The notes under the pieces are model-generated. The model made no database searches, was not told the origin of the DNA, and saw nothing but the letters and a program-made list of their open reading frames with translations. A program made the translations under genes and the position numbers. This document shows positions 2,608 through 62,605 of a DNA stretch of 64,000 nucleotides, piece by piece. The stretch's first letter is position 1, and each line of letters begins with the position of its first letter. This DNA comes from Rhea pennata (Eukaryota; Chordata; Aves; Rheiformes; Rheidae), in assembly GCF_028389875.1 (NCBI RefSeq), contig NC_084682.1, positions 6,706,001 to 6,770,000 on the forward strand, read 5' to 3'.

Positions 2608-5600
2608 TTACTGAAGTGGAGAAATCTTCAATGGTATCATGATTCTGGACTCCATTTCCTGAATTAGGGGCACTGAAAAAAATTGAGATAGGGTTTAATT
2701 TCATTAATAAAGATCATAAGTAGTTCTATACACTCAGACTAAACAGGTATTATTGTCTTCAGATCACTCTCCTAGCTACAGCATGCCAAACCTTCAGTAA
2801 CCATCGACAATCCCTTAACTGTATACTGAACAGTGATCTTTTTAATATAATCTGCTTTGATGCTTTGAACAAAAACAGCTTTTGAAGACAAATATTTCTA
2901 TTACTTCTCACCATAGTTAAAGCTATCTTACAATTATTCTGGTACATTTCCTTTGCAATCTACCCTATTTAACCAAAATCTGAAACTTTTAGCATACTTT
3001 TGTGACAGTTCTGTTACAAGAGTCATCTTTGATCTCAAAGATCTTCTGGCTCCTAGCTCCAAAGTCTGATTTGCCTTTTCAAAGGTAAGTATTTAACAAA
3101 GTTTCAGTATTTTATGAAATATTAGAGGTAAAAAAAAATAATATGAAAATAATATAAATTTCAATATGTACTGCCTATATTTTTGGATACAAACTTAAAT
3201 ATTTCACAGATCTGTTTCCTTACAGGACAAGCGTTTTTATAAACATTTACTATTAATGTAGCACTTTCTTTTAGCTACGAGGTAAGCTCTCTAACATTGT
3301 ACAGTCAATTGCAAAGTTCGCTTTACAGTGAAATGTCTCTCCTTTCCCTTACAGTAGCAAAACTGACACACAGACAAACACCATATACAAAACTTTTTTA
3401 TCATTGTGTGCAATGTACTGAGGAACAAAAACAATGGCATGCATAAAAGTCTGCCTCTATCATTCCAGTTAAGTTAACGTTACCTGTGTAATAGACTAGT
3501 TCATCCCAGCCAGGTTTATGCCAGGCAGCGTTCCTTATGTCTTCTCTGGTTTGGAGATCTTTGTAAGCTAGTGAGGGAAAATGACAAGCACAAAGTTTGT
3601 AAATAACTCTTTTTCCTTTGATGCATGAAGAGTATCCTTAAAAGCATTGTAATACACAATACACAATTGGGAGACGAAAACATTGGAAAGGAAAAAAGTC
3701 AGTTGTTCTTCTCCATAAAAAGGAAAACTCCAAAACCAACACCAATGGAAGGAACTGAGAAAGAGAGAAAAACATACTTTGCAGACGCTACACTATGTAA
3801 GTACTGCATGGCTGGAACATTTTGGGGGGTGGGCAAAGAGCCATCAAACAGTGCTCTATGAAGCACTATCTGGATTTCTGAGGAAATTAGCAAAAACCAT
3901 TAAGAGTCACAATATCAATAAACTAATGCATCTACTGATTATAAGGTTTTTTAAGTATGACAGTGGATACAAAGGGCAGTATGAGGAAGCCTAAACATGG
4001 GGGCAGGAGGTGCATTAGAAACAGGTAAGACAAATAATGCCACAGAATATAGTTCTATATAGGAGGCGTCAGATTCTTAGTGCTGGAACCTAATATTCTG
4101 AGTTCTTGAGATCTGGAGATAATGTATGTTTTCCCTAAATAAATACTGGGCAATGAGCTCCTTCAAGCTGAAAATATCCTAATGTGTGGAAAGCAGCTGC
4201 ATGTTGGTGGAGCCTAACATGAACAGAAAATCAAACCAGCATAATGTACTAATGTCAATAAATACTTGACTTTCTTCTTGTAAGCGTGGTATGTGCGATG
4301 CTTGAAACTAATCTGTAAGAAGCTGATTTCAACATGAATGTGGCCAGAAAAAAGAGATGGCAGGACATAAGTTGTCAGGCTTATGTTTTTGAAAGCAAAC
4401 AATAAGTAGTCTCTAATAAGAAAGGGCTGTGAGAAACAATTGATGGAAATAGTATAAGACAAGAAATGCTCATTTTTGTTTGCTTCAATTTAGAAAATAA
4501 AGTTGCCTACACAAAAATAAAGAAAATCAACATTGTTGATGCCAAAAAACAATTAAGACGTTTCTTTGCCTTTTGTAAGAATCTTGTTTCCCAGGCAAAA
4601 CCAACAGTCTCTTAGGGGTTGACTCAGCAAGAAAAAAGCAGGGAATGCAAACAAATTTACCCCAAAGGTGATGAACCATATACAGCTGTCCAATCTGTGA
4701 GAAAAATCCTCCAACTGCTTCATTATTATCCTGCCGAAAACGAATTGCACGAGCCCTACAAAAGATCAAAGCAACTCTTAAAAAAACAGCAGATTTCTCA
4801 GAAGGAAATAGGTGATGACTGATAGGAAAGCAGAGTTTAAAAGAAGCATGAATGTTAAACAGCACTTGCAGTACACTTCAGCAACTAAAAATGTGAAAAA
4901 CCCACAACACATTGATTTGTTATCTGTTATTGCACTGAGCAATTAAAATGTATCTATACATCTTGTTAGAATGGGTTAATTGGAGGCCTACTGTTTCATT
5001 AGCCTGTATGTTAATAATTTGTTTCTTCAACATTAGAGCCAGTATATTGATAATTGCTGGAACAGTGTAAAGTGGCAGAATGTTTTTATAAGAGGTTCTT
5101 CCAAAACTGATCTTTGAGTTTCAGCATATCATCCTCACCACATTCATTTACCACAGATTTCATGGTAGTGGAATGCAGCGTTTTTATTCACATGCACCTT
5201 TGTTACGCAGCTGTACTATGCAAAACTCCATGATTTGTTGTATAACTATCTCTTAACTATGAATCTGTTGCACCTTCTAAAATAGAACTACTAGCACTGT
5301 AGATATAAAAATCCAATTTACTGGCAAATTACTACAATTAAATAAATTATATTGATGACAATTACATGTCTAAAAATCCAAGTCCTCACACTTGTGAAAA
5401 TAATTAAAAATATTCCAAATGATTTAAGTATCAATCATCAGGCCTACAAGGATTTACAGAATGTAAACTGAAAGAAACTTACACTGGTTTTAAACAAGAC
5501 ACAATCAGAAGCATATACTGAAGAGAAGACCATCTTAAATGCTTTTAACCTATATATTAAAATACAAATGTGATGCTCAATACTTTCCAAGAAAGTTTGA

Positions 5601-8600
5601 CATTTAAAGATGAAAAGACCTAAGATTTAAGCCATTTAAACTAAAAGTCAGCCAGCTTCCAGCAGTGAGGAAGCGGTGAAAGATCAATATAGTCTTAAGG
5701 AATTAACTGTCTCTCTCTGATGAGCAGTGCTTTCTAGTGAAAGCAAAGATTACCAAGGTTTCTGCTACATCACATCAAACTTAAAAGGGTTATGTAAAAG
5801 AAAGCCAGACCACAGAGCACACAGCATTGTCTGTACACAGATTCCTCTTTCCTTGCTCAAGGAAGATATTGAAGGCCAATTATTTTACAAGTTATGTAAG
5901 AACAGCAGCAGGCCATTAATCAGGTGACTGAAACGCTTTGGTACCATTCTGTCACTTCCACCTTATAGATTTTTAAATATACATCTCTCAAATAAGAGAG
6001 CACAAGCGATAAAACAACACTTACCAGTAATTTCCCCACTCAATCATTGTTCCAGGCTACAAAAACAAAACAGACATAAAATTGTAGTTGAAAGAAAGTT
6101 AAAATATTTGGACAGTTTTCACAACGTTTACTTATGGAAAACACCATTTATTAACAAAATCACTTCCTTCAAAAGATAAGTTAATTACTGTGTTTATTTA
6201 CTATAGTACTTCTTAGTCATTCTGCCTGAAGTTTATCTCAGATCAAAACACAAGGTATTCAGCCCTTCACAGGTGATATTCAGTATCTTGTTGGAGCCTG
6301 CCTTCATATTTCATTGCCACACATCGAGAGCATCAGCAACTCTGCCATCAAATTTGGTAAGAACCAGATTTTTAAGATGAGATCTGTTTTCCATCTACAT
6401 TGTACAAACATGCTTTGAATATTTTACAACAGTGTATTGCCTGTAAAATAAAAATAAAAATGAAAATTGAAACTTACTCTAAGTTGATAGGATCTTAGTT
6501 CATAAATGTTGGGCCCCTCCCTGGGAACAGGTTCATTCCAGAAACTAAACTCCAACAATAATTGATTCCTCCGAGAGAGAAGCATGTTACCTCTTTCTTT
6601 GCGAAACTCTGTGAATTCCTTAAAAATAATGTGATTAATGTCAAACTTTATATTAGGTATCAACAATAAACAATACTATACCATACAGCAGTTCAGATTT
6701 TTCAGTGCTATTTCAGGGCTTTGGACATCCAATTCCTTTAAATTTTAAAGGCATCCAGATTTCCCTAGCATCCTTGAAAATTTCAACTGGCACCCTTACA
6801 TTGCAGATGAGAATCTGCAAGTATTTCATAAAATATTCATATATTAAACCTCAGCCTTTCTGAATGGGAATAATCCCTTTTCCAAACAGGCAGAGTATCT
6901 ACAGTTGCACAGCAAGTGATGAGATACAGCAAAAAGAGGTGTCCAAAAGTCCAATTTTTTGCTCTGACTACTCTACGTTCTCTTCTAAGTAAATCAGCTA
7001 CTTCTAGCAAAAGCTTCAAAAAAATCTCTGCATTTTACCTTATTTTGCCGGAGTTTACTCATGACCTCATTGAGAGCTGGATAGCCTCCCTCATACCTCC
7101 ACAGATGAACTAAAACAGAAAAAGGAAGCTTCTTTAAAAATGCTGAAATGTATGGAATATCACAGTATAAAAGGCTCTTCATAATACAGAATCATACAAA
7201 AACAGAAGTTTGGTAACAGGTTCAAAAATGAATTTTCATTAAAGAAAGCACTTCACCTTTGTACATTATAATTAATGGAATCATTTGCTTTTTGACAAAG
7301 GTTCTCTCAGAAAATTTTGCAATTTATTCTAACAGGAAGATTTCTGAAAGTAACTTTTGTTGCCATGCTAGTAAGATATGTCGACTTCACATGATTGTAC
7401 TTGAAACTGAGATGCAATTTAAGAGGGTGACTTAATTCCAAAGATGTGTTTTATACCAATTTCACGTGAGAGCAACAGACTGGTAGAATTTTTAGTTCAG
7501 TAAACTACTCAAGTAAAAAGAGTGTAACATAATTTCTGAGAGACATGAAAAAAATAACGCAAATGTTATTTTTACCTAAACATGAAATTAAAGAAGGCAA
7601 ACCAGAAGATACATAAGCATACTACAATTTTTTTATTTGCTAGGATTTTCCCCACCAAGCAATTTCAAAATAGGCACCTCCTTTTGATAGGCTTTTCAAA
7701 GCATTCTCGATAACAAGATTTATTTACAAGCTCTTAATAAAGCAAAGCAACAATATTTCATCTTCAAATCTCCTTCTTTCCTTTCCTTGAAGACTCTCAA
7801 AAGCTATTTCCTCTCATATAAAGAAGTTAATGCTGTCTTGTGCTTTTTCCAAGAGAGCAAACTGGAGACTAATGCAAGGCACTTCATTATCAGAACAGAT
7901 TCATCCAGTGTGCCTGCAGCTGCTGTCTAATCCCCAAGACAAATTTGATATATTCAGCTACTATTAACCCAGCCTAGGCACAAATACTGAACAAGTCAAA
8001 CCCCCTTAATGTGTATTATTACACTGCTAGAACTGTTGCTACAACATTATCAAGGCAGGCTATCAATGCAGTTACAGATACAGTCTGTGTTAATAAATTA
8101 TGAAAACAATGAAAGAGGCTTGGCTAAGATATTTTAATTTCAATTGCCTTCATTCCCCAATTTCCCTCCAACTTTTAAGAACTGTTTCTCAATGTTCCAT
8201 TTCTCTGCTGTTATTTCCTCACATTTTTTTCAGCATCAATATTGCAACATACTATGAATGCAGCAGACATTAATGTGTACATGAGTATATTCTTCAATAG
8301 TGAAGTAACAACCTTGATGTCAGCCAAGCTCTAACAACAGAGCTTCTTCTACAGAACAAATATCAGTACTTCACTCAATATTTGTGGCTTCGCTATCCTA
8401 CAGCTTCTCACAGCCTTAGAATTTTTTCAGGTTTTCTATCTACACTAGACACTTTGTAGTTACCTCTGTAGCAGCTATTCGATAATTTCTAGTTCAACGT
8501 ATTTTCACTGTATGTGATTAGGCAGTATCCTTTTATGAACGCGAACAGAAATACTTGACTTTCCACCAGTAATGGCTTTAATTATTCCAAGGTTACAGTG

Positions 8601-14600: not shown

Positions 14601-16559
14601 GTTGAAACAGCATGTTTTTGAAAATGGAGCAGAGAAACAGCAAATGATTGGAGAAAGAAGTCCACATTTCAAAAAAGTTATTGTCAGCTCCTCTGTGTCA
14701 TTTCAAAATGTAGAGGAAAAAGTCAATATTTAATTACTAGAAAAAAAAATGTAAAGTTAAAAGCATTTTAAATAGTTGTTCCATTATTATGTTCTGTTGG
14801 CGTTTTCAGCTATTGAAAGATTAATATCATGACTTTGAAAACCTAAGCTTATCCTTTTTCTGCTTTTAATTCCTGTGGACTACTGACAGACTGATCCATT
14901 CCTTTTAAGCTTCACCCCTAGAACCTAGCACAATGCCACAAAGATCCGTTTGTAAATACAAAACAGGAACACTTAATAGTTTGCTTATGTTAGACTAAAA
15001 ATGCTGGTGAAAACATTTCTATCCCACTTAACTTCTGCTTTAGCACAAAATATAACTTGGGTGGAGAGGGAGGTATCAGGTCAAATACTTAGATTTTGTA
15101 CTATCCTATGCCTGCCTGGAAGAAAAAAAACTTGTCTATAAACTGACAGTTTTTTATTTGTTGTCTAGATAATTGTCAAAGTTTATTTCAAAGAAAAATA
15201 CCTGTACACATAAAATCTCCTAATGTTTACTCTAAACAACTCCTTCCCTTCCCACCCCAACAGCTGCTTCCAGAGCTCATCCCTTTAGCCTTGCACAGGG
15301 GCTGCTGCCCATTCTGAGGCTTGAGACAGCAGCTTCCCTTGTTTTAAAAAGAGGGAGAAAAAATGGGTATAGCTCCATCCCAGCTTGGGCACTCCTGTGC
15401 TTCCAACACGCGAAGAACATAATGCACATCTGCTTCCCCTACACCCAAGGGCCACGTGTATACATTTGTGCCCAGACACTTGGGAATTCTGGATGTGTAT
15501 GTTTATGCCCTTGCCACCCTAGAGGCATGCATGTGTCTGACTTCTCATACGCTGTACGCATGGGTGTGTGAACATCTGCTCGCATGCCCTGACACCTAGG
15601 GGACGTACGCACGGGCGCACACACACGCACCAACACCTGAAGGTATGAAGTATGCACATATAGATATGCAGCCTGACGTGCAAGCAGCTGCATGCAAGTG
15701 CTTGCACCCCAACACCAGAGACGCATACGTGGGTGTGCACATGTGCACGGCTGCACCCCCCGACCCAAGAAACACACCTCACAGCTTTACACACAAGGGT
15801 AAGAGCGCTGTGACTTGACAGCTGTGCACCCTGAAACCACAGGGGTGTTGGTGTGTGCGGCCACTCACCCGCCTCCGAGGGATACGTAAGTGAGGAACAG
15901 ACGCGTCCCCCACCGCTCCATGGGGCAGGGGCGCAGGGCTGCGGTGCAACCTGCCGCTGTGGGTTCACACCCCGACCTCCGCGGGCGCTGCGGGGTGCAG
16001 GGCCACGCAGCCCAGCCCCAGCGGACAGGTGCTGCAGGGTCGCACGGGCAGGGCGCACACGCTGACAGCAGGGGAAGGCCCGGGGGGCAGGACGGCGGCA
16101 CGTCCCGACGGCAGCGGGCATGCGGCTGTGCCCGCGCCCGGACCACGCGGGCGATGTGCGGGCGGGGCGGCCTGCGCCCCGGTGGGGGGGGGAAGGGGGC
16201 GGCCTGCACCCCGCGGCGGCGGCGGCGCGGCCTTGCCGAGGGGCCGGGGACCGACCTTGCGGCCCGTGACCTTGAGGGAGAGGCGGCGCGGGCAGCGCTG
16301 TCCCCGCCGCCGCGCCAGCGCTGCCCGCCCGCCCGCGGGGCGCCATTTCCAGTCAGGCCCGGGGGGGGGGGGGGGGGAAGGGGGGGCGCGGGGAGCAGGG
16401 GGAGCGCCGCGCGGCGGGCCGAGCGCACACGCGGGCGGCTGCCGCCTCCCGCCGCCCCCGGCCCGGGGCTCACCTGAGCGCCAGGCCGCCGCCGGGCGGG
16501 AGGCGCGGCCCGGCGCCGGCTCCCGCCAGGCTCCGCCGCAGCAGCACTCGCGCCGCCAT
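2608..16559 (-). CDS. NIPSNAP2: NIPSNAP2 (protein NipSnap homolog 2), complete, 10 coding exons
   Basis: Coding exons in transcription order: 16559-16474, 12270-12131, 12052-12007, 9162-9068, 7109-7039, 6618-6478, 6056-6025, 4755-4661, 3567-3484, 2672-2608. Joined they give 855 nt, or 284 residues (about 286 in human), with matching phases and GT-AG borders throughout. The start [17 protein letters not shown] is arginine-rich without acidic residues, as expected of a mitochondrial presequence. The body holds family blocks such as [53 protein letters not shown] and [20 protein letters not shown], and it ends [17 protein letters not shown]1/2 are mitochondrial matrix-associated proteins that can appear on the surface of damaged mitochondria and recruit autophagy receptors; this is family knowledge. 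NIPSNAP2 is favoured over NIPSNAP1 by the neighbouring MRPS17. Exon 1 is GC-rich; the other exons lie in AT-rich DNA. Introns hold MIR-like relics and no other gene. Confidence 0.96.
10035..10180 (+). repeat. MIR/CORE-SINE-like relic in a NIPSNAP2 intron
   Basis: It carries the ordered phrases typical of MIR: TTCTGCCACTAACTT, then GATGACCTTGAGCAAATC, then a CCTCA-like block and GTGAAATAATA. The copy is diverged and 5'-truncated, and it lies in the intron between exons 3 and 4. The match is to my memory of the consensus. Confidence 0.65.
10925..11035 (+). repeat. Possible second MIR-type relic
   Basis: The order ATCCCCATTTCA, AAGGCAAAGAGATGTTA and GGCTGAGCCAGTAACAG resembles the 'cccattttacagatgagg ... 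gaggcacagagaggtta ... gcagagc' portion of MIR-family SINEs. It is strongly diverged, so this is tentative. Confidence 0.4.
15480..15775. repeat. Alternating purine-pyrimidine tract, decayed minisatellite-like
   Basis: Irregular CACGCA, TGCATG and GTGTGTG words recur over about 300 bp, including GCGCACACACACGCAC and GTGCACATGTGCAC. Such alternation favours left-handed Z-DNA. The tract lies in intron 1 of NIPSNAP2 just downstream of its CpG island. Open frames across it are rich in Cys, His and Val and look like artefacts of the repeat. Confidence 0.5.
16361..16386 (+). repeat. G-run (17 G, then AA and more G) in NIPSNAP2 intron 1
   Basis: Seventeen G in a row are followed by AA and another G stretch. 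It lies about 90 bp downstream of the NIPSNAP2 exon 1 donor, so the nascent transcript would carry a C-run and the non-template side could form a G-quadruplex or i-motif. Run length is prone to sequencing error. Confidence 0.7.
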
Positions 16560-16562
16560 CTT
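16552..16562 (-). promoter_or_regulatory. NIPSNAP2: YY1-type motif over the NIPSNAP2 start codon
   Basis: The minus strand reads AAGATGGCGGC, the classic YY1 element that also contains the initiator ATG. YY1 sites at start codons are common in housekeeping and mitochondrial genes and imply a short 5' UTR. Binding itself is inferred. Confidence 0.6.
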
Positions 16563-16593
16563 GCTCCGGCCGCCTCCCTCCGCCGCCTGGCTT

Positions 16594-16617
16594 GGGGGGG
16601 GGGGGGGTGGGGGGGAG
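16594..16617 (+). repeat. G-run just upstream of the NIPSNAP2 start
   Basis: Fourteen G, one T and a further G stretch lie about 35 bp upstream of the NIPSNAP2 ATG, in the 5' UTR or core promoter. The transcript strand would be C-rich. It is a possible G-quadruplex/i-motif site and a likely spot for length variation. Confidence 0.65.
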
Positions 16618-16706
16618 GCGCTGCGCGGCCGCCCGCCGCCGGGGGGCGCTGCGCCGCCGCGAGCAGCGGGTGTCTCCGGCCCCGCCCCCCGGCGCGGGCG
16701 CACCGC

Positions 16707-16718
16707 TGCGCATGCGCG
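16707..16718. promoter_or_regulatory. NIPSNAP2: NRF1-type site upstream of NIPSNAP2
   Basis: TGCGCATGCGCG is an essentially perfect palindromic NRF1 motif, about 150 bp upstream of the NIPSNAP2 start codon. NRF1 drives many nuclear genes for mitochondrial proteins, so the site fits the gene. Occupancy is inferred. Confidence 0.6.
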
Positions 16719-16870
16719 GCGCCGCGGCCCGCCCGGGCCCCGCGCCGAGGCGAGACGTCGCCGCGCTGCGCGGTCCCGCTCCCCCGCAGCAGGCCGGGCC
16801 GCCGCCGGGCCGCCTCCCTCCGCTGCTCCCCACGGTTCTAACCCCCCGGCACAACACGCGTAAGGCACCC

Positions 16871-19469
16871 CTCCCGCCTTCGGGAAGGCTGGAGCATTCT
16901 TCAGCACTACTCGGGCTGGAAGAGAGCAACGCTCCCGGGTGCCCAAAGCAGCCGGCGTTTTCCCTTGCCCACCCGGCACGCAAGGGCACTGCCACCTCTG
17001 AAATCCTTCAGCTATAGTATCCAACCCCGTTGAAATTACCGGTTTAAACTCACTCCCGAACTTGCAGAAAGTTTTCACAAGCTAAAAAGATACACTAAGG
17101 GTGATGTCCCGTGCAAACCACTTACCAAGAAAGATTCCAGATGATGTTTTCTGAATCACATGCAAAAACTAGTTTCTTACTCCTCAAATTTTCACCCACA
17201 TACAGTTGAACTGTTCCCTCTTAACCTGTTCCTGCCAGAGTAGTACTTAGCTTAGCTAAACGAGGTGGTGTGCTAATAATCGCTAATAATCAAATCATCA
17301 AATAACACAAACTTTCTTAAACTAAGCACTTTTGAAAGACATTACTAAAGGAACAATTAACACAGCAAGTAAGTTTATGAACAAGCCTTAAGTTTCTACA
17401 TAGCGCATCTAAATGAGGTTTATAAAATTTCATTATGCAAATCCCACTGTCAGTCATTATCAGCACACACTGCAAGATGAATGGACACATGCAGTGTTCA
17501 CATCAGTAAAATACAAAAATCTGTGGTGCATCTTTCAAGACCTTTTTAAGACTGACATTTAAAAATTTACTGCATGTGTATTTAATCACATTTTGATTTG
17601 AAGGCATGTTAAGATCACAATTAGAGGTAGCTAAAAGTTATTAATCAAGAAGAAAACTCCTGTATTTTGTGTTCCTTAGTTAACAGGACACTCACTTGTA
17701 AGTACTGTTCAGATTCCTTTACTGACTGCCTGGATGCAATTTAAATTTGTATTTTCTGCTGCCCAGGGCAGTGCTCTAGCCTAGAACTGATTTCTCTCAA
17801 TCTTTATTAGGGATGAAATTCCACATGGTGGATTCACTTGAACAGCAGGAGTCCAGATTTTCTTCCATTTCAATGAGGGCCTTAATCAGCCAGCTAAAGT
17901 TACAAAACAAACAATTTACATAAACTTAAACCATTTCAAAGGCAGTTCGATAAGAGTTACCTGAAGTCATACACTTAAGATGTCTCAAAGCTGAAGACCA
18001 AGTTCACATTATTAAGTAGATAAGTTTCCATCAAGGTCTTACACCTCAGCTTATTGATCTCACTGAGAAATATGGTAGATATTAGTTGAGGACTGTGAGA
18101 AAAATAGTCTACCATCCAAAAAGGTAATATTTTGGTTCAGAAACACTGAAGCTTCCTTATCTCATTCTTCCTAGTCCAAATTATCTGAGTTCAATCTGAC
18201 TTTGCCAGCAGTTTGGGGACAGCCGAAATTGCCATTTTGGGCATGTGAAGGAAACCAAAATAATTTACAGTACGCTAGGACAGTGATAAAGAACTTATAG
18301 CTTACACGTAGAGTGGTTCAGTTTCAAAAAAACTGAAATACTTCAAGTCATCAGCAGAAGAATTCTGTTCAGAAATTCTTTGTTCAGCTTATCTTGAGCA
18401 AAGAGCAATGACATAGGCAAGCACACACCTCTTCACACAGGATTCCTCAAAGCTTTGATATACCCACTCTCTTCCATTCAGGAGGGTGGTATTCCATCCC
18501 TGCAAATGCTGTGTTTTGATGCAAATTCCCTTTAGATCTAAATACAAAACCAAAGTTAGCTACAAAAGGCTACTGTAACAGTAGCATACTCTCAGTTTAT
18601 GTCTGGGAAGACAGGACACATGATCCCCAGAGCTGTAGGAGGATAAAGTAGTATCTAATCATGAATTTCTATGGCCTTCCTGTTTTACATTACAGCATTC
18701 AGCAAATCAGTACCAGTCTATCTCCCCATGTGTTGCTTTAACTAGTTCTTCTGATGAGACTAAGTATAAGCATATTTACTTTCATTTTTTTAGCTTTATA
18801 TTCTCATCACCTTCTACTTCTTGCTGGCAGTTCAAAGTTCCATCTCCCCCCAAACTGAATACTTTGGGCAAGTTACTCAGCTGCAAAGCAAGCATTTTTT
18901 TCTGAAATAAGAACATTTATCCAGCAGTTTGAGAGCTAATAGCCCTAAAGAAAGTTCTTAATTTTCCAGCCCTCACTGGGGCAGCTTAGCAAATTCGATA
19001 TAGATTTCTTCCTGCAAAGGGAACTATGCCAAGCTACCCAAAGTTTATAACAGCAGTAAAGTGAGAATATTTAAAGGCAAGTGATTGTGTTTTTCTTAAA
19101 AATACAGCCATATGGTTTAAATGACTAGGAGGAAGTAAGGACACACATAGGTAGCTGGCTTTAAATTTTTTACACTTCCTTTCAAAAGTTTTAATAGCAT
19201 TGTTTTAAGTATAAGCCTATGGACAAAAAAAAAAGATTGTCTGCCGTAGAGAACAATCAAATTCAGACCCTCCCCTTCCCCACAACTTAAACATTATATA
19301 GTTATATTCTTCTAAGTGAACAGCTGGCTTCTGAGACTATTAAGAGCTCCGGCAAAACTACATGCAAGAAGTAGTAGTGTTAACAACTGACACTTTCTCC
19401 ATGTTTTCATTTAGAAACTTGAGGTGCTCAATCTATAACGTCCAGTTTTGGAAGCAACTATGTTTACTA
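16871..19469. other. Spacer between MRPS17 and NIPSNAP2; no gene seen
   Basis: This is mostly AT-rich sequence between the MRPS17 polyadenylation signal and the NIPSNAP2 CpG island, both genes reading leftward. I found no convincing exon, RNA gene or recognisable repeat. Confidence 0.5.
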
Positions 19470-19475
19470 TTTATT
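19470..19475 (-). terminator. MRPS17: MRPS17 polyadenylation signal
   Basis: AATAAA on the minus strand about 100 bases past the MRPS17 stop codon gives a short 3' UTR, as expected for a small housekeeping gene. It is the first such hexamer downstream of the stop. Confidence 0.65.
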
Positions 19476-19574: not shown

Positions 19575-21313
<1,739 letters not shown>

Positions 21314-22139
21314 TTAGATATGATCATCCAGTGCCTGGTAACAAGCAAGCAGATATGTTATTTTCACACACACACAAATCAGTATCAAAGTTACAATTTT
21401 CATTTCAAACTAAGAATTTAATCATATTTTTTGGGGGGGGGGGAATAAAAAGGCTGGATACAAACAGTTCAAACTTTCAAATACTGCACTACTTCAGTCT
21501 TGCAGTAATGGTATTATGAGAAGGGATATGAATATACTGCTATTACGAGGAAAAGTTACTTCAGCATGGCAATGACAATGGAAATAATAGTTTAAGATCT
21601 TTTTCCATATGGTCCACAAGATTTGTTTAAACCACAATGACTTTGTCACATACAAAAGACAAACATTTAGCTGCTGAAGTTTGTACAAATTGAACTCACA
21701 CTCCAACAGTTGGTGTTATACATCAGCTCCTAGTGCAACTAGAGTTAACCAGACTGCAAAATGAAAGGGATTCGTAAAGCAGTCTATACTGACTTTGAAA
21801 AGTCACTTGCTTGTGTGCATACCACAACTACTAGTTTAGACACTGAAACCTAAATTAATGAAATATTCAATTTCTCTGATCTAACATTTATGCAACCACT
21901 TTTGAGTTAGCTCCTCCTATACAAAGAATTACAATAGTACTCTACTAATTTTGCCTAAAAAGGCAGTTTCCTCTATCAGCCTTGCAAGATTCGCAGTCAA
22001 AAGGAGGGATCTGGAAGCGCCCTCGCACTAGGGCTAATGGACAGCGGAGGGGCGAAGCGGCGGCCGCGAAGCGCCGGGGTCCAGCACCTTCAGGAAAGGG
22101 AAACCAAACAGGTCCGGGGCCTCCGCAGCCCTCTCCTCC

Positions 22140-22233
22140 CCCCGGCCCCGGCCCCGGCCCCGGCCCCGGCCCCGGCCCCGGCCCCGGCCCCGGCCCCGGC
22201 CCCGGCCCCGGCCCCGGCCCCGGCCCCGGCCCC
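22140..22233 (-). repeat. Perfect GGGGCC hexanucleotide repeat, about 15.7 copies
   Basis: Ninety-four bases of uninterrupted CCCCGG units on the plus strand read as GGGGCC units on the MRPS17 sense strand. The tract begins about seven bases inside the probable MRPS17 intron 1, after a GTGAGAG donor at 22239-22233. All frames through it are open, giving Gly-Arg, Gly-Pro or Ala-Pro runs depending on strand and frame. The motif, strand and intron 1 position match the human C9orf72 repeat; the gene is unrelated. The copy number in the source animal may differ from the assembly. Confidence 0.95.
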
Positions 22234-22239
22234 TCTCAC

Positions 22240-22300
22240 CGCCGCCGCGGCGCCTCACGGGCCTTAGCGAGCCGGAGGCGGAAGGGGCGGAGCCTCGGGC
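22240..22300 (-). other. MRPS17: Candidate non-coding first exon of MRPS17
   Basis: The minus strand ends in a good donor (GCGGCG then GTGAGAG), fitting the acceptor at 21335 just before the coding start. The right edge is a guess, since the transcription start cannot be read from sequence. No in-frame ATG is required here because the MRPS17 ATG lies in the next exon. Confidence 0.45.
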
Positions 22301-22320
22301 GGAAGGGCCGCGCGGCGGAG

Positions 22321-22361
22321 GGGCGGTGTCATGGCGGGGAAGGGGGCGGTGTCATGGCGGG
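22321..22361 (+). promoter_or_regulatory. Two direct copies of an 18-bp CATGGCGG-containing element
   Basis: GGGCGGTGTCATGGCGGG occurs exactly at 22321-22338 and again at 22344-22361, a 23-bp period, or just over two helical turns. Each copy joins a GC box (GGGCGG) to a YY1-like core (CCGCCAT on the other strand). It probably marks the core promoter of the rightward gene; a role is inferred. Confidence 0.6.
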
Positions 22362-23635
22362 AGGGTTTAAAGGCGCAGGCAGCCGCCTACGGTCGGGGCT
22401 GCTGCTGCGTCCCCTGCCCGCGTGGGGGGGGCGCGGGGGAGGCGTGGGGGCGCCTTGCCACCCGCGTCTCGTCCCCCCGTGGGCGGGCGGCGGCGCTTCT
22501 CCCCACAGCGGGCTGAGGGGCCCTGACTGGGCCCGCAGCTGGGGCCCGGGGCACACTGGGCCCCTTCCCTCAGGCCTCGCCCGAGCCTGCGGGGCGGCCG
22601 TGGCGCGCGTGGTGCGGTGCCTTCCCCCCCTTCCCCGTGCCGGTAACGGGTGCGAGCGCCGTGGGGCCCTCTCGCGGGGCAGCCCGCGGGGGGGGAGCCG
22701 CTTTTGCGCCTCGAATGAGGAAGGGGGTAAAGCTGTGGGGAAAGGTGACTTTTTTGTGGGTGGCTGTGTGTTTTCACAGGAATTCGTGCTCTTCTGCCCA
22801 CAGTTAGATCAAGGATGTGTAAATGGGCTAAATCTGGGGGGATTTCATGTGAACCTACTGAAATTATAGCGTGTCAGAAATGGGAGGAGAACAGGCCTGT
22901 TGTCCTTGCTTACCCACCCTCTGGTAGAAATTCGGTTTAAATCTGTGTCTAAAATCAGCACCTAGGGAAATCTCTGGGTTGAATAATGGCAATAAGGGCC
23001 TTGGCTCGGCCATTGCACTCAAGCTAATGTGCTGCTAGCAGCTCCTGGAGGGTGCTGTTGCACTTTGCGCCTGTGACTTCAGCCTGGGGCTAGCTTTACA
23101 TCTTTTTAACTTGTTTTCACTCACCTTTTTTTTTCACTTGCAAATATTTTGGTGCTGCCCGTTTTTCAGGCTCGTTTTCTTTAGGCGTTACTGTCCCATT
23201 GTCTGTCACCACAGGAAGAAGGCAGGTAGGAATTGTGTTTATTTAATAGGACAACACTGCAATTTTGCTATTTGAGGTGACTGGGTACGATGAGAACAAA
23301 CTATTTGTATTGCTGGACACACTGTTGAAACAGTTTATCAAATACTGCCAAAGAGATTGTTTGAGAGTTCATTATCAGTTCTTAGAAATATGCAAGTCAG
23401 GGGTCGTGGTCTTGTTCCTGAAACCTGCGCTTCTTTTAGCGTCTTGCTGCTTGAATTGCAGTGGAGAGAAGTTGGGAGGAGTCTTGCCGGCACAGGCAGG
23501 AAACGGTTAAGAGTCCTTCGTATCACCTGGGGAAGCAATTCTTTGATTTTTCAGAGGGCGCTAACATGCTGTGGTTCATAGGAAACAAAGGAAAGGGGAT
23601 CAACTATAAAAGTTGTTCTTGAATTTTATTTTCAG

Positions 23636-40600: not shown

Positions 40601-43600
40601 GCCTACTACAAAAGCAGATGAGGAATGTCTGTAATAGAGAACAGCCCTGGTTCTGATTCTCTTGGGCAAAACACTTCTGCCTCGCTCTATCCATATATCT
40701 AATATAGGTTTGTAATTTCCTGGAGAGATGCAGAGAAGGACTAAAATTTGCATTAGTATTAATACTTTAATCTTTATTTTTCCTACTTTTTCCTGTGCTT
40801 CATTTCTTTTTTTTTCCTCTTGTCTGTACAGTTAACTATTAAACCTCTTGACAAAAAAGCAGAAGTCTTCAAATTCTTTTCCTCACAACTCAAAGTAAAC
40901 AAATTGGTAAGTGTGCTGCTTTCCTCCTTTAAAACAGAGCCTTTTAATACTGAGTGATATGTGAGTAAGGACTCTTGTTTGCCTGTGAAGCCTGTGTAGA
41001 GGCTGGGAACCCTGAGTTTCAACGTGTTTCCCTGTTCTGTCTGGGAAATCAGGGAGCACTTGTTTGTCCTACCCTGTTTGGGTAGATGATGAGTGGAAAG
41101 TGAGAGGTGAAAGAAGGCTGAAGTTGCAAAGAGATCTGAATTTTCTTTGCGGTCTGAAAGGTTGGGAGGTGGCATCATATGGAAAGGTGCGAAGTCACTG
41201 CGGCATCTGCCTGTCTGACTGTGGGTTCCTAACTAGGTACCACTTCCTGTTTTCCAAGAGAAGCAACAGGAAGGGATGTAATCGACTGAAGTGTATCATC
41301 ACTAACTGCTTCCTAACCCCACCGCTGGGGTTGGGTCATTTTTCAGTGTGCTTGTAGAGGGACCATTGGAGGTGACTGTTCTCATAACTACCTCCTGTGT
41401 ATTTCTAGCCTAAATCAATTGCCTTTCCTTTTCCAGGAAATTAGAACCAGAGAAGGGTGAAGGACAAAGAATCCCTCTTCCTATTAGGAACTTTTCTAAA
41501 CCATTACATACCTGGCTATGAGCCTGCCCTGAGTGTTGCTCTTTTCAGAAGGCAAAGAACTGCCAGCACTTGTGCTGAAGTCAGTGTCAGCTTTTGTCCT
41601 GTGAGACCTCCATGGGGCTCATAGCCCTCTGACTGGAGTACAAGTGTATCTCAGTCGTGTTTGGTTTGTTTTTCCCATGCAGATTTTGCAGCTGTGCATT
41701 GGAAACCATGACCTGTTTATGAGGAGAAGAAAAGTGGACTCAATAGAGATCCAGCAAATGAAAGCACAGGCCAGAGAAGAAAAAGCTAGAAAAAAGGTAG
41801 ACCTCTGCTCCTCTGCTGCTGAAAATACTGTTTATTATTCCAGCTGGTGCTCTTGCTGTCCATGCATTCATCAATACGTGTATGGGAGGTGAGAAAGTGC
41901 AGCAGGAGCATGTGTGGGAACAACTTGTGTGTGTTTGTAGCATCCGAGAAAATAAGTGAAGTTTGTGATCGCTTCTTCAGTTCCACTTCAGTTCAGTTCC
42001 ACAAAGATCTGGGGTACATGGCAGACCAATCCAGGTCTTTTCCCCAACAGTCTGAAATAACTAGTGTTACTAGTTAGTGGAGTTCAGTGCTGTTGAGAGC
42101 AGGTTGCTTCAGCATTGTCTCTGGTGGACTTCAGTCTACCAGTCAGAGAGCAGTCAGTTCCTCATTACTTGTTTGCTGTGAGTCCACTTGGCTGCCTCAG
42201 GATTCTGCTGCAAACTCACAAACTTTGTATTGCTCATTCTCTTTCCAGATGGAGAATCAAAGGTTGGCCAGGGAAAAGCAGCTCCGAGAAGAAGCTGAGC
42301 GAGCCAAAGAGGAGCTGGAAAGGCGTCTTTTCCAGCTGGAAGATGAAGCCAGGCAAGCCAATGAGGCCCTGGTGAGTAGCATACTAGTCTGAATGTTCCT
42401 GTGTTTGAAGGGCTGTCTTGGTTTAGAAGGTTTTTTTTCTTATGGCTCCCATAAGACAGCAGAAGCTGTGGTTTAGGTGAGGCAGGAGAGTTTTTACCAA
42501 GTGGGAGGGGGACATGTTGGAATACCTGGGAGAAGTCTGGTCTGCCTAGCCTCCATTTGCTGTGAACTGTTCTGTTTTCCCTGTATTTGGTTCACAGTGC
42601 TTTCCTCAGGCAAAGAGGAAGGAATGCATGCAGCATTAGGAGCTGAAGTTGGGAGAAAGGGCATGGTGCATATGGCCCTGACAGCTGAAGGGGGCAACTT
42701 TTGTCAGCATTTGGTTAATGTCTTTATTCAACACTGAACCAAATGTCTCTCCTTGCTTTATAGAGGTAAGAGGCAGGAAGGAAGATAGGCAATTCAGGAG
42801 CAGAGGGGAAAGGACAGATCCTATAATTATGTTTACTTTGATTTTTATTTTAAAGATTAACATTTTTATCCCTTGATCTCCTGGGGAAAGATGTCATCAT
42901 CTTGACTGCAGGAGTGATTTTATAAATGCTAGACAGAACATCTAAGAAGAACTGTTTGCTCTTAGCTCCGATCCCAGGAAGCAGCAGAGTTGCTGGCTGA
43001 GAAAGCTCAGATTGCAGAAGAAGAGGCCAAATTGCTTGCCCAGAATGCTGCAGAGGCTGAGCAAGAGCGACAGAGGCTGGAGATCACAGCTCTGAAAACC
43101 AAGGAAGAGAAACGCCTGATGGAACAAAAGATGAGGGAGGCAGAGCTGATAGCAGTGAAGCTGGTGAAGGAATCTGACCGGAGGTTGGATTTGCTTGGGT
43201 GGGATTATCTGGGCCCTACTGAGATGCCTGAGTGGAGAAGGTGCTGCTCTTTGCAGAGCTCAGCCCAGGAGGGAAGGATTTTTCCCAAGCAATGCTTTGG
43301 AGTGGCTACATTTTCTTGTGTATTGTTTGTTGCACCTTGTACTGGTGGTTGTGATTCAGATCAATAAGAGTTTACAGAAGATCTGACAGTTTCAGAGATT
43401 TTTGTCATTAATGATCCACAAATACTGTGCTGAAGCATTTTCTATTTAGCATTATCAAAAGAGCACTGACTACCTAGCTAGCTAAGTTTAACAGTCTCTG
43501 TACACTGGGAATTGAGACTTTCATTAGTGCCAAGGTGTGTTTTCTTACAGACTTTTAAAATCATTGAGAAGCATAAACCACGTATGCTCCTATGGAATAT

Positions 43601-61868: not shown

Positions 61869-62605
61869 ATGAAGGTCTTGGTGGCCGCCCTGGCTGCTCT
61901 CCTGCTCGCCGCCCTCTGCTCCCCGGCCGAGGCCCATCTTGGTGAGTCGGCAGCTGCTCCCCGCTCGCGGCCGGGGCTGGGGCCGGGGCGGGCGATGCCC
62001 TGCCGGGGGTGCCGGGGCCGGGCGCACGGGAGAGCCCCTTCGCTGACGGCGGGGATGCCGGTGGCGCGGGGAGGGCCGGGAGCGGGCGACGGCCACGGCG
62101 CGGACGTCGGGCTGGGGTCGGGCGTGCGCGGGGTGTGCGCGGGGAGGGACGCGGGCTGGGACCGCGCGCCGCCGAGGGGCGGGCACCCCGGCCCGCGGCC
62201 AGCAAGGTGTCGGGGCTGGCCGGGGCGCTCAGCCCCTCCCGCCTCCCTCCCAGACGGCGTCCCCACGTCCTGCTGCTTCAGCTACCAGCTCCGACCCATC
62301 CCGCGGGGCCTCATCGCCTCCGCCTACGTCTCCAACAGCAACTGCACTCAGCCGGGAGTGATGTGAGTACCGGGGGGCCGCCGCCGCCCCGGGACCCTCC
62401 GCGGGCGCTCGGCCGGGAGCGGGGCCGGGAGCCGCGGTGGGGCCGGGGCACGGGGCCGGGGCGCCCGCGTCCCGCCGGCAAAGCCCGCTCACGGCCCTTT
62501 GCTCCCCGCAGCTTCGTCACCAAGAAGCAGCGGGAGATCTGCGCCGACCCCCAGGCCGCCTGGGTCCGGGCGCACCTCAAACACTTCCAGGCGAAGCAGA
62601 ACTGA
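61869..62605 (+). CDS. CC chemokine, MIP/CCL5-like group, complete (3 exons)
   Basis: Exons 61869-61941, 62254-62362 and 62512-62605 give 91 residues with the phase 1/phase 2 intron pattern standard for CC chemokines. Residues 1-22 form a signal peptide (MKVLVAALAALLLAALC, then SPAEA). The mature part has the adjacent-cysteine motif PTSCCFSYQLRPIPRG and two further cysteines (NSNCTQPGV and REICADP), so both disulfides can form. KKQR in the 40s loop is a BBXB motif of the kind that binds heparan sulfate in CCL5. NCT is an N-glycosylation sequon that uses the third cysteine position. The tail ends HLKHFQAKQN. CC chemokines are secreted ligands of leukocyte CCR receptors. I cannot match it to a single mammalian chemokine, so no symbol is given. 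Confidence 0.95.

What the first reader, a model, noticed from the sequence alone, without database searches (positions are those of the whole stretch)
22140..22233. C9orf72-type GGGGCC repeat at the start of MRPS17 intron 1
About 15.7 uninterrupted GGGGCC units lie on the sense strand of MRPS17, some seven bases past a likely 5' splice site and inside a CpG-island promoter. Motif, strand and intron 1 position all match the human C9orf72 repeat, whose expansion causes ALS/FTD, yet the host gene is a mitoribosomal protein. The tract can form G-quadruplexes and R-loops, and its frames are open for dipeptide (GR, GP, AP) translation. It may be length-variable between individuals.
Basis: partly seen in the sequence, partly recalled or inferred. 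Interest (0 to 1): 0.8.

Follow-up and report, generated by a model that had tools for sequence, protein, structure and literature searches.

The report
ALS-type repeat abutting MRPS17 splice site
In a bird-like genome, the six-letter DNA repeat that causes human ALS when it expands sits directly behind the first splice site of a mitochondrial ribosome gene, and it turns out to be one of several long repeats of this kind placed at the start of a first intron.

Summary
Window 22140-22233 is a perfect (CCCCGG)15.7 tract, GGGGCC on the MRPS17 strand. The MRPS17 model holds: best donor GCG|GTGAGA at 22240|22239, intron 1 ending at 21335, 137-aa protein matching mitoribosomal uS17m. The array fills intron 1 positions +7 to +100, in a CpG island.

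It is not unique: the genome holds 1061 GGGGCC runs of 3 or more units, 23 of 10 or more, 10 of 13 or more; this one is fifth longest. New here: ranks 1, 2, 4, 5 and 6 of those ten begin at +5 to +17 of what reads as a first intron, sense strand: LSM2, an unnamed gene, GLMP, MRPS17, RPS23. Genome-wide, GTGAG lies within 30 nt upstream of the G-rich strand at 69 loci, against 25 for the opposite orientation, 11 downstream and 17 for a same-composition control.

Best reading: a microsatellite grown from the G-quadruplex-prone start of intron 1, bounded by the donor, transcribed and spliced out. Expansion, RAN translation and selected function are untested.

The parts
22140..22233 (-). Perfect GGGGCC array, 15.7 units, intron 1 positions +7 to +100 of MRPS17
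22234..22242 (-). 5' splice site GCG|GTGAGA; last exon base 22240, first intron base 22239 (predicted)
   Evidence: no RNA evidence
21335..22239 (-). MRPS17 intron 1, 905 nt, ending ...GCTTGTTACCAG (predicted)
21188..21334 (-). MRPS17 exon 2; start codon at 21310-21308
   Evidence: the spliced frame matches uS17m
19575..19865 (-). MRPS17 exon 3, coding part to the stop codon; AATAAA at 19475 beyond it
22000..22799 (.). CpG island holding the array and the presumed MRPS17 promoter; the non-coding exon 1 would lie just right of 22240, its start unknown

Best explanation
A G-rich, G-quadruplex-capable microsatellite at the very 5' end of MRPS17 intron 1. The start of first introns is known to be rich in G-quadruplex motifs on the non-template strand; slippage on such a seed grew a GGGGCC array, and purifying selection on the splice donor set its left edge at +7. 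It is transcribed into pre-mRNA and removed with intron 1. It belongs to a genome-wide class, since the longest GGGGCC arrays of this genome are concentrated behind first-intron donors. Shown: the array, the coding exons, the genome-wide orientation, position and length bias. Inferred: origin by slippage, the donor as boundary, use of the donor, splicing out, and at most a mild effect on transcription or on intron-1 splicing.
For: Array at +7..+100 behind the best local donor. Five of the ten longest arrays start at +5, +6, +7, +7 and +17 of an intron on the sense strand; in LSM2, GLMP and RPS23 the reading frame continues across the junction and the exon-2 translations match the known proteins. 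GTGAG within 30 nt upstream of (GGGGCC)3: 69 loci; opposite orientation 25; downstream 11; GAGTG control 17, of which 10 are loci already among the 69; binomial p 6e-6 for 69:25. Starts at +5..+20 in 56 of 69 sense and 13 of 25 antisense loci, p 0.008. Exon-side consensus: -1 G at 51 of 71 and -2 A at 24 of 71 sense sites, above the -8..-4 background. Long arrays are over-represented: 7 of 23 with 10 or more units against 62 of 1038 shorter, p 0.0004. Published context: quadruplex motifs at the 5' end of intron 1 on the non-template strand (PMC3630100, passages) and downstream of 5' splice sites in Chordata (PMC12581993, passages).
Against: Most arrays are not at donors: 69 of about 1061 runs have GTGAG within 30 nt upstream, and by a 6-bit donor score only 8 of the 23 longest do. 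One of the seven GTGAG cases among the 23 (C27:1403749) has a poor exon side, 3.8 bits. Antisense GTGAG sites also look partly like donors (-1 G 16 of 25, -2 A 10 of 25), so the strand preference is about 2.8-fold, not absolute. A generic (GGGGC)3 array shows only a weak, non-significant bias, 32 versus 20 loci, p 0.13. No RNA, no read data and no second species were available.
Confidence: 0.7

Rival explanations
1. The array is a selected element: G-runs directly behind the donor bind hnRNP H/F-type factors or form quadruplexes that pause polymerase, so that array length tunes first-intron splicing or early transcription of housekeeping genes.
For: Recurrence behind the first donor in LSM2, RPS23, MRPS17, GLMP and one unnamed gene and the excess of long arrays at GTGAG. 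Allowing quadruplexes lowers the model energy of the 160-nt RNA from -102 to -187 kcal/mol. In human C9orf72, longer repeats go with more unspliced intron 1 within the normal range too (PMC8031855, passages). The hnRNP H/F role is recalled.
Against: Tolerance behind a constrained donor predicts the same pattern; there is no cross-species or population evidence. Ordinary base-pair folding is not better than shuffles (195 of 200 shuffles fold at least as well).
Confidence: 0.13
2. The MRPS17 transcript starts at or left of the array, or uses another donor, so that the array is promoter or 5'UTR rather than intron.
For: The start site is unknown. The only proof of the donor is its score; exon 1 is non-coding, so no reading frame supports the junction, unlike LSM2, GLMP and RPS23.
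Against: It is the best donor between 22700 and 21340, in a CpG island, and other arrays abut donors in the same way.
Confidence: 0.11
3. A C9orf72-like unstable locus: the array can expand, be translated into dipeptides and harm the animal.
For: Same motif, strand and intron number as the human repeat.
Against: 15.7 units is within the human normal range (PMC5822839, passages). The GA and GP frames are stopped just upstream and no ATG or CTG precedes the array in any sense frame as far as scanned. Many arrays of similar length coexist in the assembly.
Confidence: 0.03
4. The length or purity of the array is an assembly artefact.
For: GC-rich quadruplex-forming avian repeats are hard to sequence and assemble (PMC6792250, passages). 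No reads are available here.
Against: No N in the 10-kb stretches around the ten longest arrays, and 23 arrays grade from 10 to 20 units instead of one odd case.
Confidence: 0.03

Closest known systems
Human C9orf72 intron-1 GGGGCC repeat, normal allele
   Same: GGGGCC on the sense strand, in intron 1 and a CpG-rich promoter region, copy number within 3-30 (PMC5822839, passages)
   Different: Human repeat lies 241 bp into intron 1, this one at +7; other gene; no evidence of expansion. The C9orf72 orthologue of this genome has no tandem GGGGCC in the 19.8 kb examined
G-quadruplex motifs at the 5' end of first introns (Eddy and Maizels 2008, not held; seen through PMC3630100, passages)
   Same: Position at the very start of intron 1, G-rich non-template strand
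   Different: Those are mostly short motifs by my recollection; here a 94-bp perfect tandem array that stops where the donor begins
Quadruplex-capable tandem repeats in introns of GC-rich avian genes (PMC6792250, passages)
   Same: Tandem G-rich repeats in introns of bird genes
   Different: Other motifs and genes (leptin, TNF-alpha); no donor-abutting pattern in the passages seen
NOP56 intron-1 repeat of SCA36 (table in PMC3630100, passages)
   Same: GC-rich repeat in intron 1
   Different: Different motif and gene; disease expansion

Membership tests
C9orf72-type GGGGCC intronic repeat | Tandem GGGGCC on the sense strand | tested here: met
C9orf72-type GGGGCC intronic repeat | Located in intron 1 | tested here: inconclusive
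   Best donor and acceptor place it in intron 1, but there is no RNA evidence
C9orf72-type GGGGCC intronic repeat | Host gene is C9orf72 | tested here: not met
   Host gene is MRPS17; the C9orf72 orthologue is on C61 and shows only four single GGGGCC units in 19.8 kb
C9orf72-type GGGGCC intronic repeat | Pathogenic expansion to hundreds of units or more | tested here: not met
   15.7 units in the assembly; other alleles not testable
C9orf72-type GGGGCC intronic repeat | Dipeptide (RAN) translation | not testable with these tools
   Frame reading only: stops upstream in GA and GP, no ATG or CTG upstream
5'-end intron-1 G-quadruplex motif | Runs of three or more G on the non-template strand at the start of intron 1 | tested here: met
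   Array at +7..+100; G4Hunter-type score 1.90 over the first 120 intron bases
5'-end intron-1 G-quadruplex motif | Forms a quadruplex in the cell | not testable with these tools
   Only a model energy

The most novel reading that the evidence does not exclude
In this bird-like lineage, long GGGGCC arrays anchored 4-16 bases behind the first splice donor are a recurring regulatory architecture of RNA-processing and ribosomal genes (LSM2, RPS23, MRPS17) and of GLMP, in which array length tunes first-intron splicing or promoter-proximal transcription; the human C9orf72 repeat would be a stray example of the same process.
Probability: 0.12. Interest if true: 0.8.

Novelty: new variant of a known kind. 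Interest (0 to 1): 0.5.

Why it matters
How GGGGCC repeats arise in intron 1, and how their length affects the nearby donor, is an open question in C9orf72 biology. A genome with at least five natural, non-expanded GGGGCC arrays directly behind what read as first-intron donors offers a natural experiment: copy number, splicing efficiency and R-loops can be compared between genes, individuals and species without disease. It also warns that a GGGGCC array in intron 1 is not by itself a disease-type locus.

Tried and rejected
Rejected: that the array is unique or special to this gene. Rejected, within the 19.8 kb examined: that this genome's C9orf72 carries a tandem GGGGCC repeat (four single units). 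Rejected: that all sense dipeptide frames are open upstream. Led nowhere: Rfam at gathering threshold, 0 matches; tRNA scan, 0; base-pair folding, no better than shuffles; papers holding both GGGGCC and MRPS17, 0. The (GGGGC)3 comparison gave 32 sense and 20 antisense loci, not significant. The plus-strand transcript expected at the other side of the CpG island was not identified.

Limits of the counts. Loci were counted by me from the printed matches. The 1061 is the difference between 2310 matches of (GGGGCC)3 and 1249 of (GGGGCC)4; it counts each uninterrupted stretch, so a broken-up array counts more than once. GTGAG is only one donor form, so counts based on it miss LSM2 and GLMP. The donor matrix is a textbook consensus recalled by me. 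Of the 23 longest arrays, 10 were read with long flanks (and the window), 9 with 35 bases upstream and 4 only between donor and array plus 8 bases.

Full report
What is there. Window 22140-22233 is a perfect 94-bp tandem array, CCCCGG on the plus and GGGGCC on the minus strand, 15.7 units, uninterrupted. None of 100 shuffles of the window gave even two adjacent units. It lies in a CpG island of about 22000-22799.

The gene. On the minus strand exon 2 (21334-21188, ATG at 21310) and exon 3 (19865 to a stop ending at 19575) give a 137-aa protein (the first join was one base short and was mended in 64). Its best solved relative is uS17m/MRPS17 of entry 3j9m, E 8.8e-62; exon 3 alone hits Pfam Ribosomal_S17. 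The best donor between 22700 and 21340 is GCG|GTGAGA at 22240|22239. With the intron ending at 21335, intron 1 is 905 nt and the array fills +7 to +100. Exon 1 would be non-coding and its start is unknown. There was no RNA evidence.

The genome. The window is part of an assembly of 1.269 Gb in 180 contigs; contigs seen range from 217 Mb to 25 kb. I take it for a bird; this is inference from size, contig lengths and gene order recalled from chicken, not a test. (GGGGCC)3 matches 2310 times and (GGGGCC)4 1249 times, so there are 1061 runs of 3 or more units. There are 23 arrays of 10 or more units and 10 of 13 or more. In base pairs these ten are 122, 106, 97, 95, 94 (this one), 91, 88, 84, 84 and 83.

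The pattern. The ten longest arrays were read with their flanks. Five start directly behind a donor on the GGGGCC strand. LSM2: exon ending in the ATG, donor GTCAGT, array +7..+128 of a 277-nt intron. Unnamed C27 gene: exon ending GAG, donor GTGAGC, array +6..+111 of 356 nt, next exon with an ATG. GLMP: donor GTGCGG, array +5..+99 of 354 nt. MRPS17: +7..+100 of 905 nt. RPS23: ATGG|GTGAGC, array +17..+107 of 182 nt. The names LSM2, RPS23 and GLMP rest on matches of their exon-2 translations to solved proteins, E 1.1e-9, 1.5e-33 and 6.1e-9. These are the introns behind the start codon or behind a short leader; further upstream exons were not excluded. The other five: C26, C11, C1 and C10 have no donor of 6 bits within 36 nt upstream, and C3 has none on the sense strand but a GAG|GTGAGC 32 nt off in the opposite orientation.

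Genome-wide test. GTGAG within 30 nt upstream of (GGGGCC)3 gives 100 matches at 69 loci, with 9 matches for the reversed pattern. With the array in the other orientation there are 39 matches at 25 loci, 7 for the reversed pattern. GTGAG downstream gives 16 matches at 11 loci; its reversed pattern, which amounts to GAGTG upstream, gives 29 matches. GAGTG upstream searched directly gives 26 matches at 17 loci, 10 of them loci already among the 69. Binomial p is 6e-6 for 69:25, 2e-11 for 69:11 and 1e-8 for 69:17. Array starts lie at +5..+20 in 56 of 69 sense and 13 of 25 antisense loci, Fisher p 0.008. At 71 sense GTGAG sites (two loci have two) -1 is G in 51 and -2 is A in 24, against 161 and 47 of 355 at positions -8 to -4. 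The 25 antisense sites also look partly like donors (-1 G 16, -2 A 10), so donors with the C-rich orientation exist too.

Length. 7 of 23 arrays of 10 or more units have GTGAG within 30 nt upstream against 62 of 1038 shorter ones, p 0.0004; for 13 or more units 3 of 10 against 66 of 1051, p 0.02. By donor score instead, 8 of the 23 have a sense donor of 6 bits or more in the upstream stretch read: five of the seven GTGAG cases outside and inside the top ten plus LSM2 and GLMP are among them as listed, while the GTGAG of C27:1403749 scores 3.8; C61:61304760 (ATG|GTGCGG, 5.8) and C29 (4.5) fall below the line. A generic (GGGGC)3 array shows a weaker bias, 32 versus 20 loci, p 0.13.

How it most likely works. 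Reviews report G4 motifs at the very 5' end of intron 1 on the non-template strand in nearly half of human genes (PMC3630100, passages, citing Eddy and Maizels 2008, which is not held) and, across Chordata, a 4.2-fold non-template enrichment of G4 motifs (one of two methods; 2.1-fold by the other) in the intron downstream of 5' splice sites (PMC12581993, passages). A GGGGCC seed there can grow by slippage; the donor cannot be overwritten, so the array ends near +6. This predicts the sense bias, the concentration at +5..+20 and long arrays that abut donors. Growth and boundary are inferred. The RNA has a far lower model energy when quadruplexes are allowed, -187 against -102 kcal/mol; ordinary pairing is not exceptional.

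Relation to C9orf72. Same motif, strand and intron number; copy number within the human normal range of 3-30; but the human repeat lies 241 bp into intron 1 (PMC5822839, passages). This genome's C9orf72 orthologue is on C61. The 19.8 kb that hold its first matched exon and run upstream contain four single GGGGCC units and no tandem pair, although a CpG-rich kilobase lies about 1-2 kb upstream of that exon. In people longer repeats, also within the normal range, go with more intron-1 RNA, and expanded alleles with cryptic donors; the authors suggest an effect on adjacent donors (PMC8031855, passages). In this genome the arrays abut the donor itself, so that idea can be tested on them. Dipeptide translation is not favoured: stops at 22257 (GA, with only a GTG between) and 22238 (GP), and no ATG or CTG upstream in GR as far as scanned.

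Novelty. In ten searches of the open-licence library (listings only), plus passages of seven papers, I saw no description of GGGGCC arrays anchored at first donors in birds; most subscription papers are not held. The kind is known (quadruplex motifs at the 5' end of intron 1; GGGGCC intron-1 repeat). The long tandem, donor-abutting form recurring in several housekeeping genes is what I call a new variant. Whether it is selected or merely tolerated is open; I favour tolerated.

Noticed in passing
G000 C46, L050 (array at 4922-5043 of its reverse complement): The longest GGGGCC array of this genome, 20.3 units, begins at +7 behind ATG|GTCAGT of LSM2, a spliceosome and mRNA-decay protein.
   Followed up: partly
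G000 C61, L051 about 4978-5160: RPS23: the array is half of a 182-nt intron, so length changes there could matter most for splicing.
   Followed up: partly
window 21271-21327, minus strand: MRPS17 exon 2 holds an upstream ATG (21327) whose 18-codon frame overlaps the main start at 21310 and ends at 21271: a possible overlapping uORF.
   Followed up: no
window 62411-62462: Imperfect GGCCGG repeat, 8.5 copies, 71% matches, next to a chemokine-like ORF (IL8 family 19.8 bits, below the cut-off of 21.3).
   Followed up: no
window 42966-43367 (+), 16470-17081 (-) and 6424-6675 (-): Plus strand: an ezrin/radixin/moesin helical segment, merlin-like (PF20492, 37.8 bits, cut-off 40). Minus strand: ORFs that resemble NIPSNAP2 exons; that name is recalled and no Pfam family matched.
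   Followed up: no
G000 C1:63300465-63300558: A 12-unit array with two successive CAG|GTGAG on the sense side and a GTGAG on the other side in the opposite orientation.
   Followed up: no
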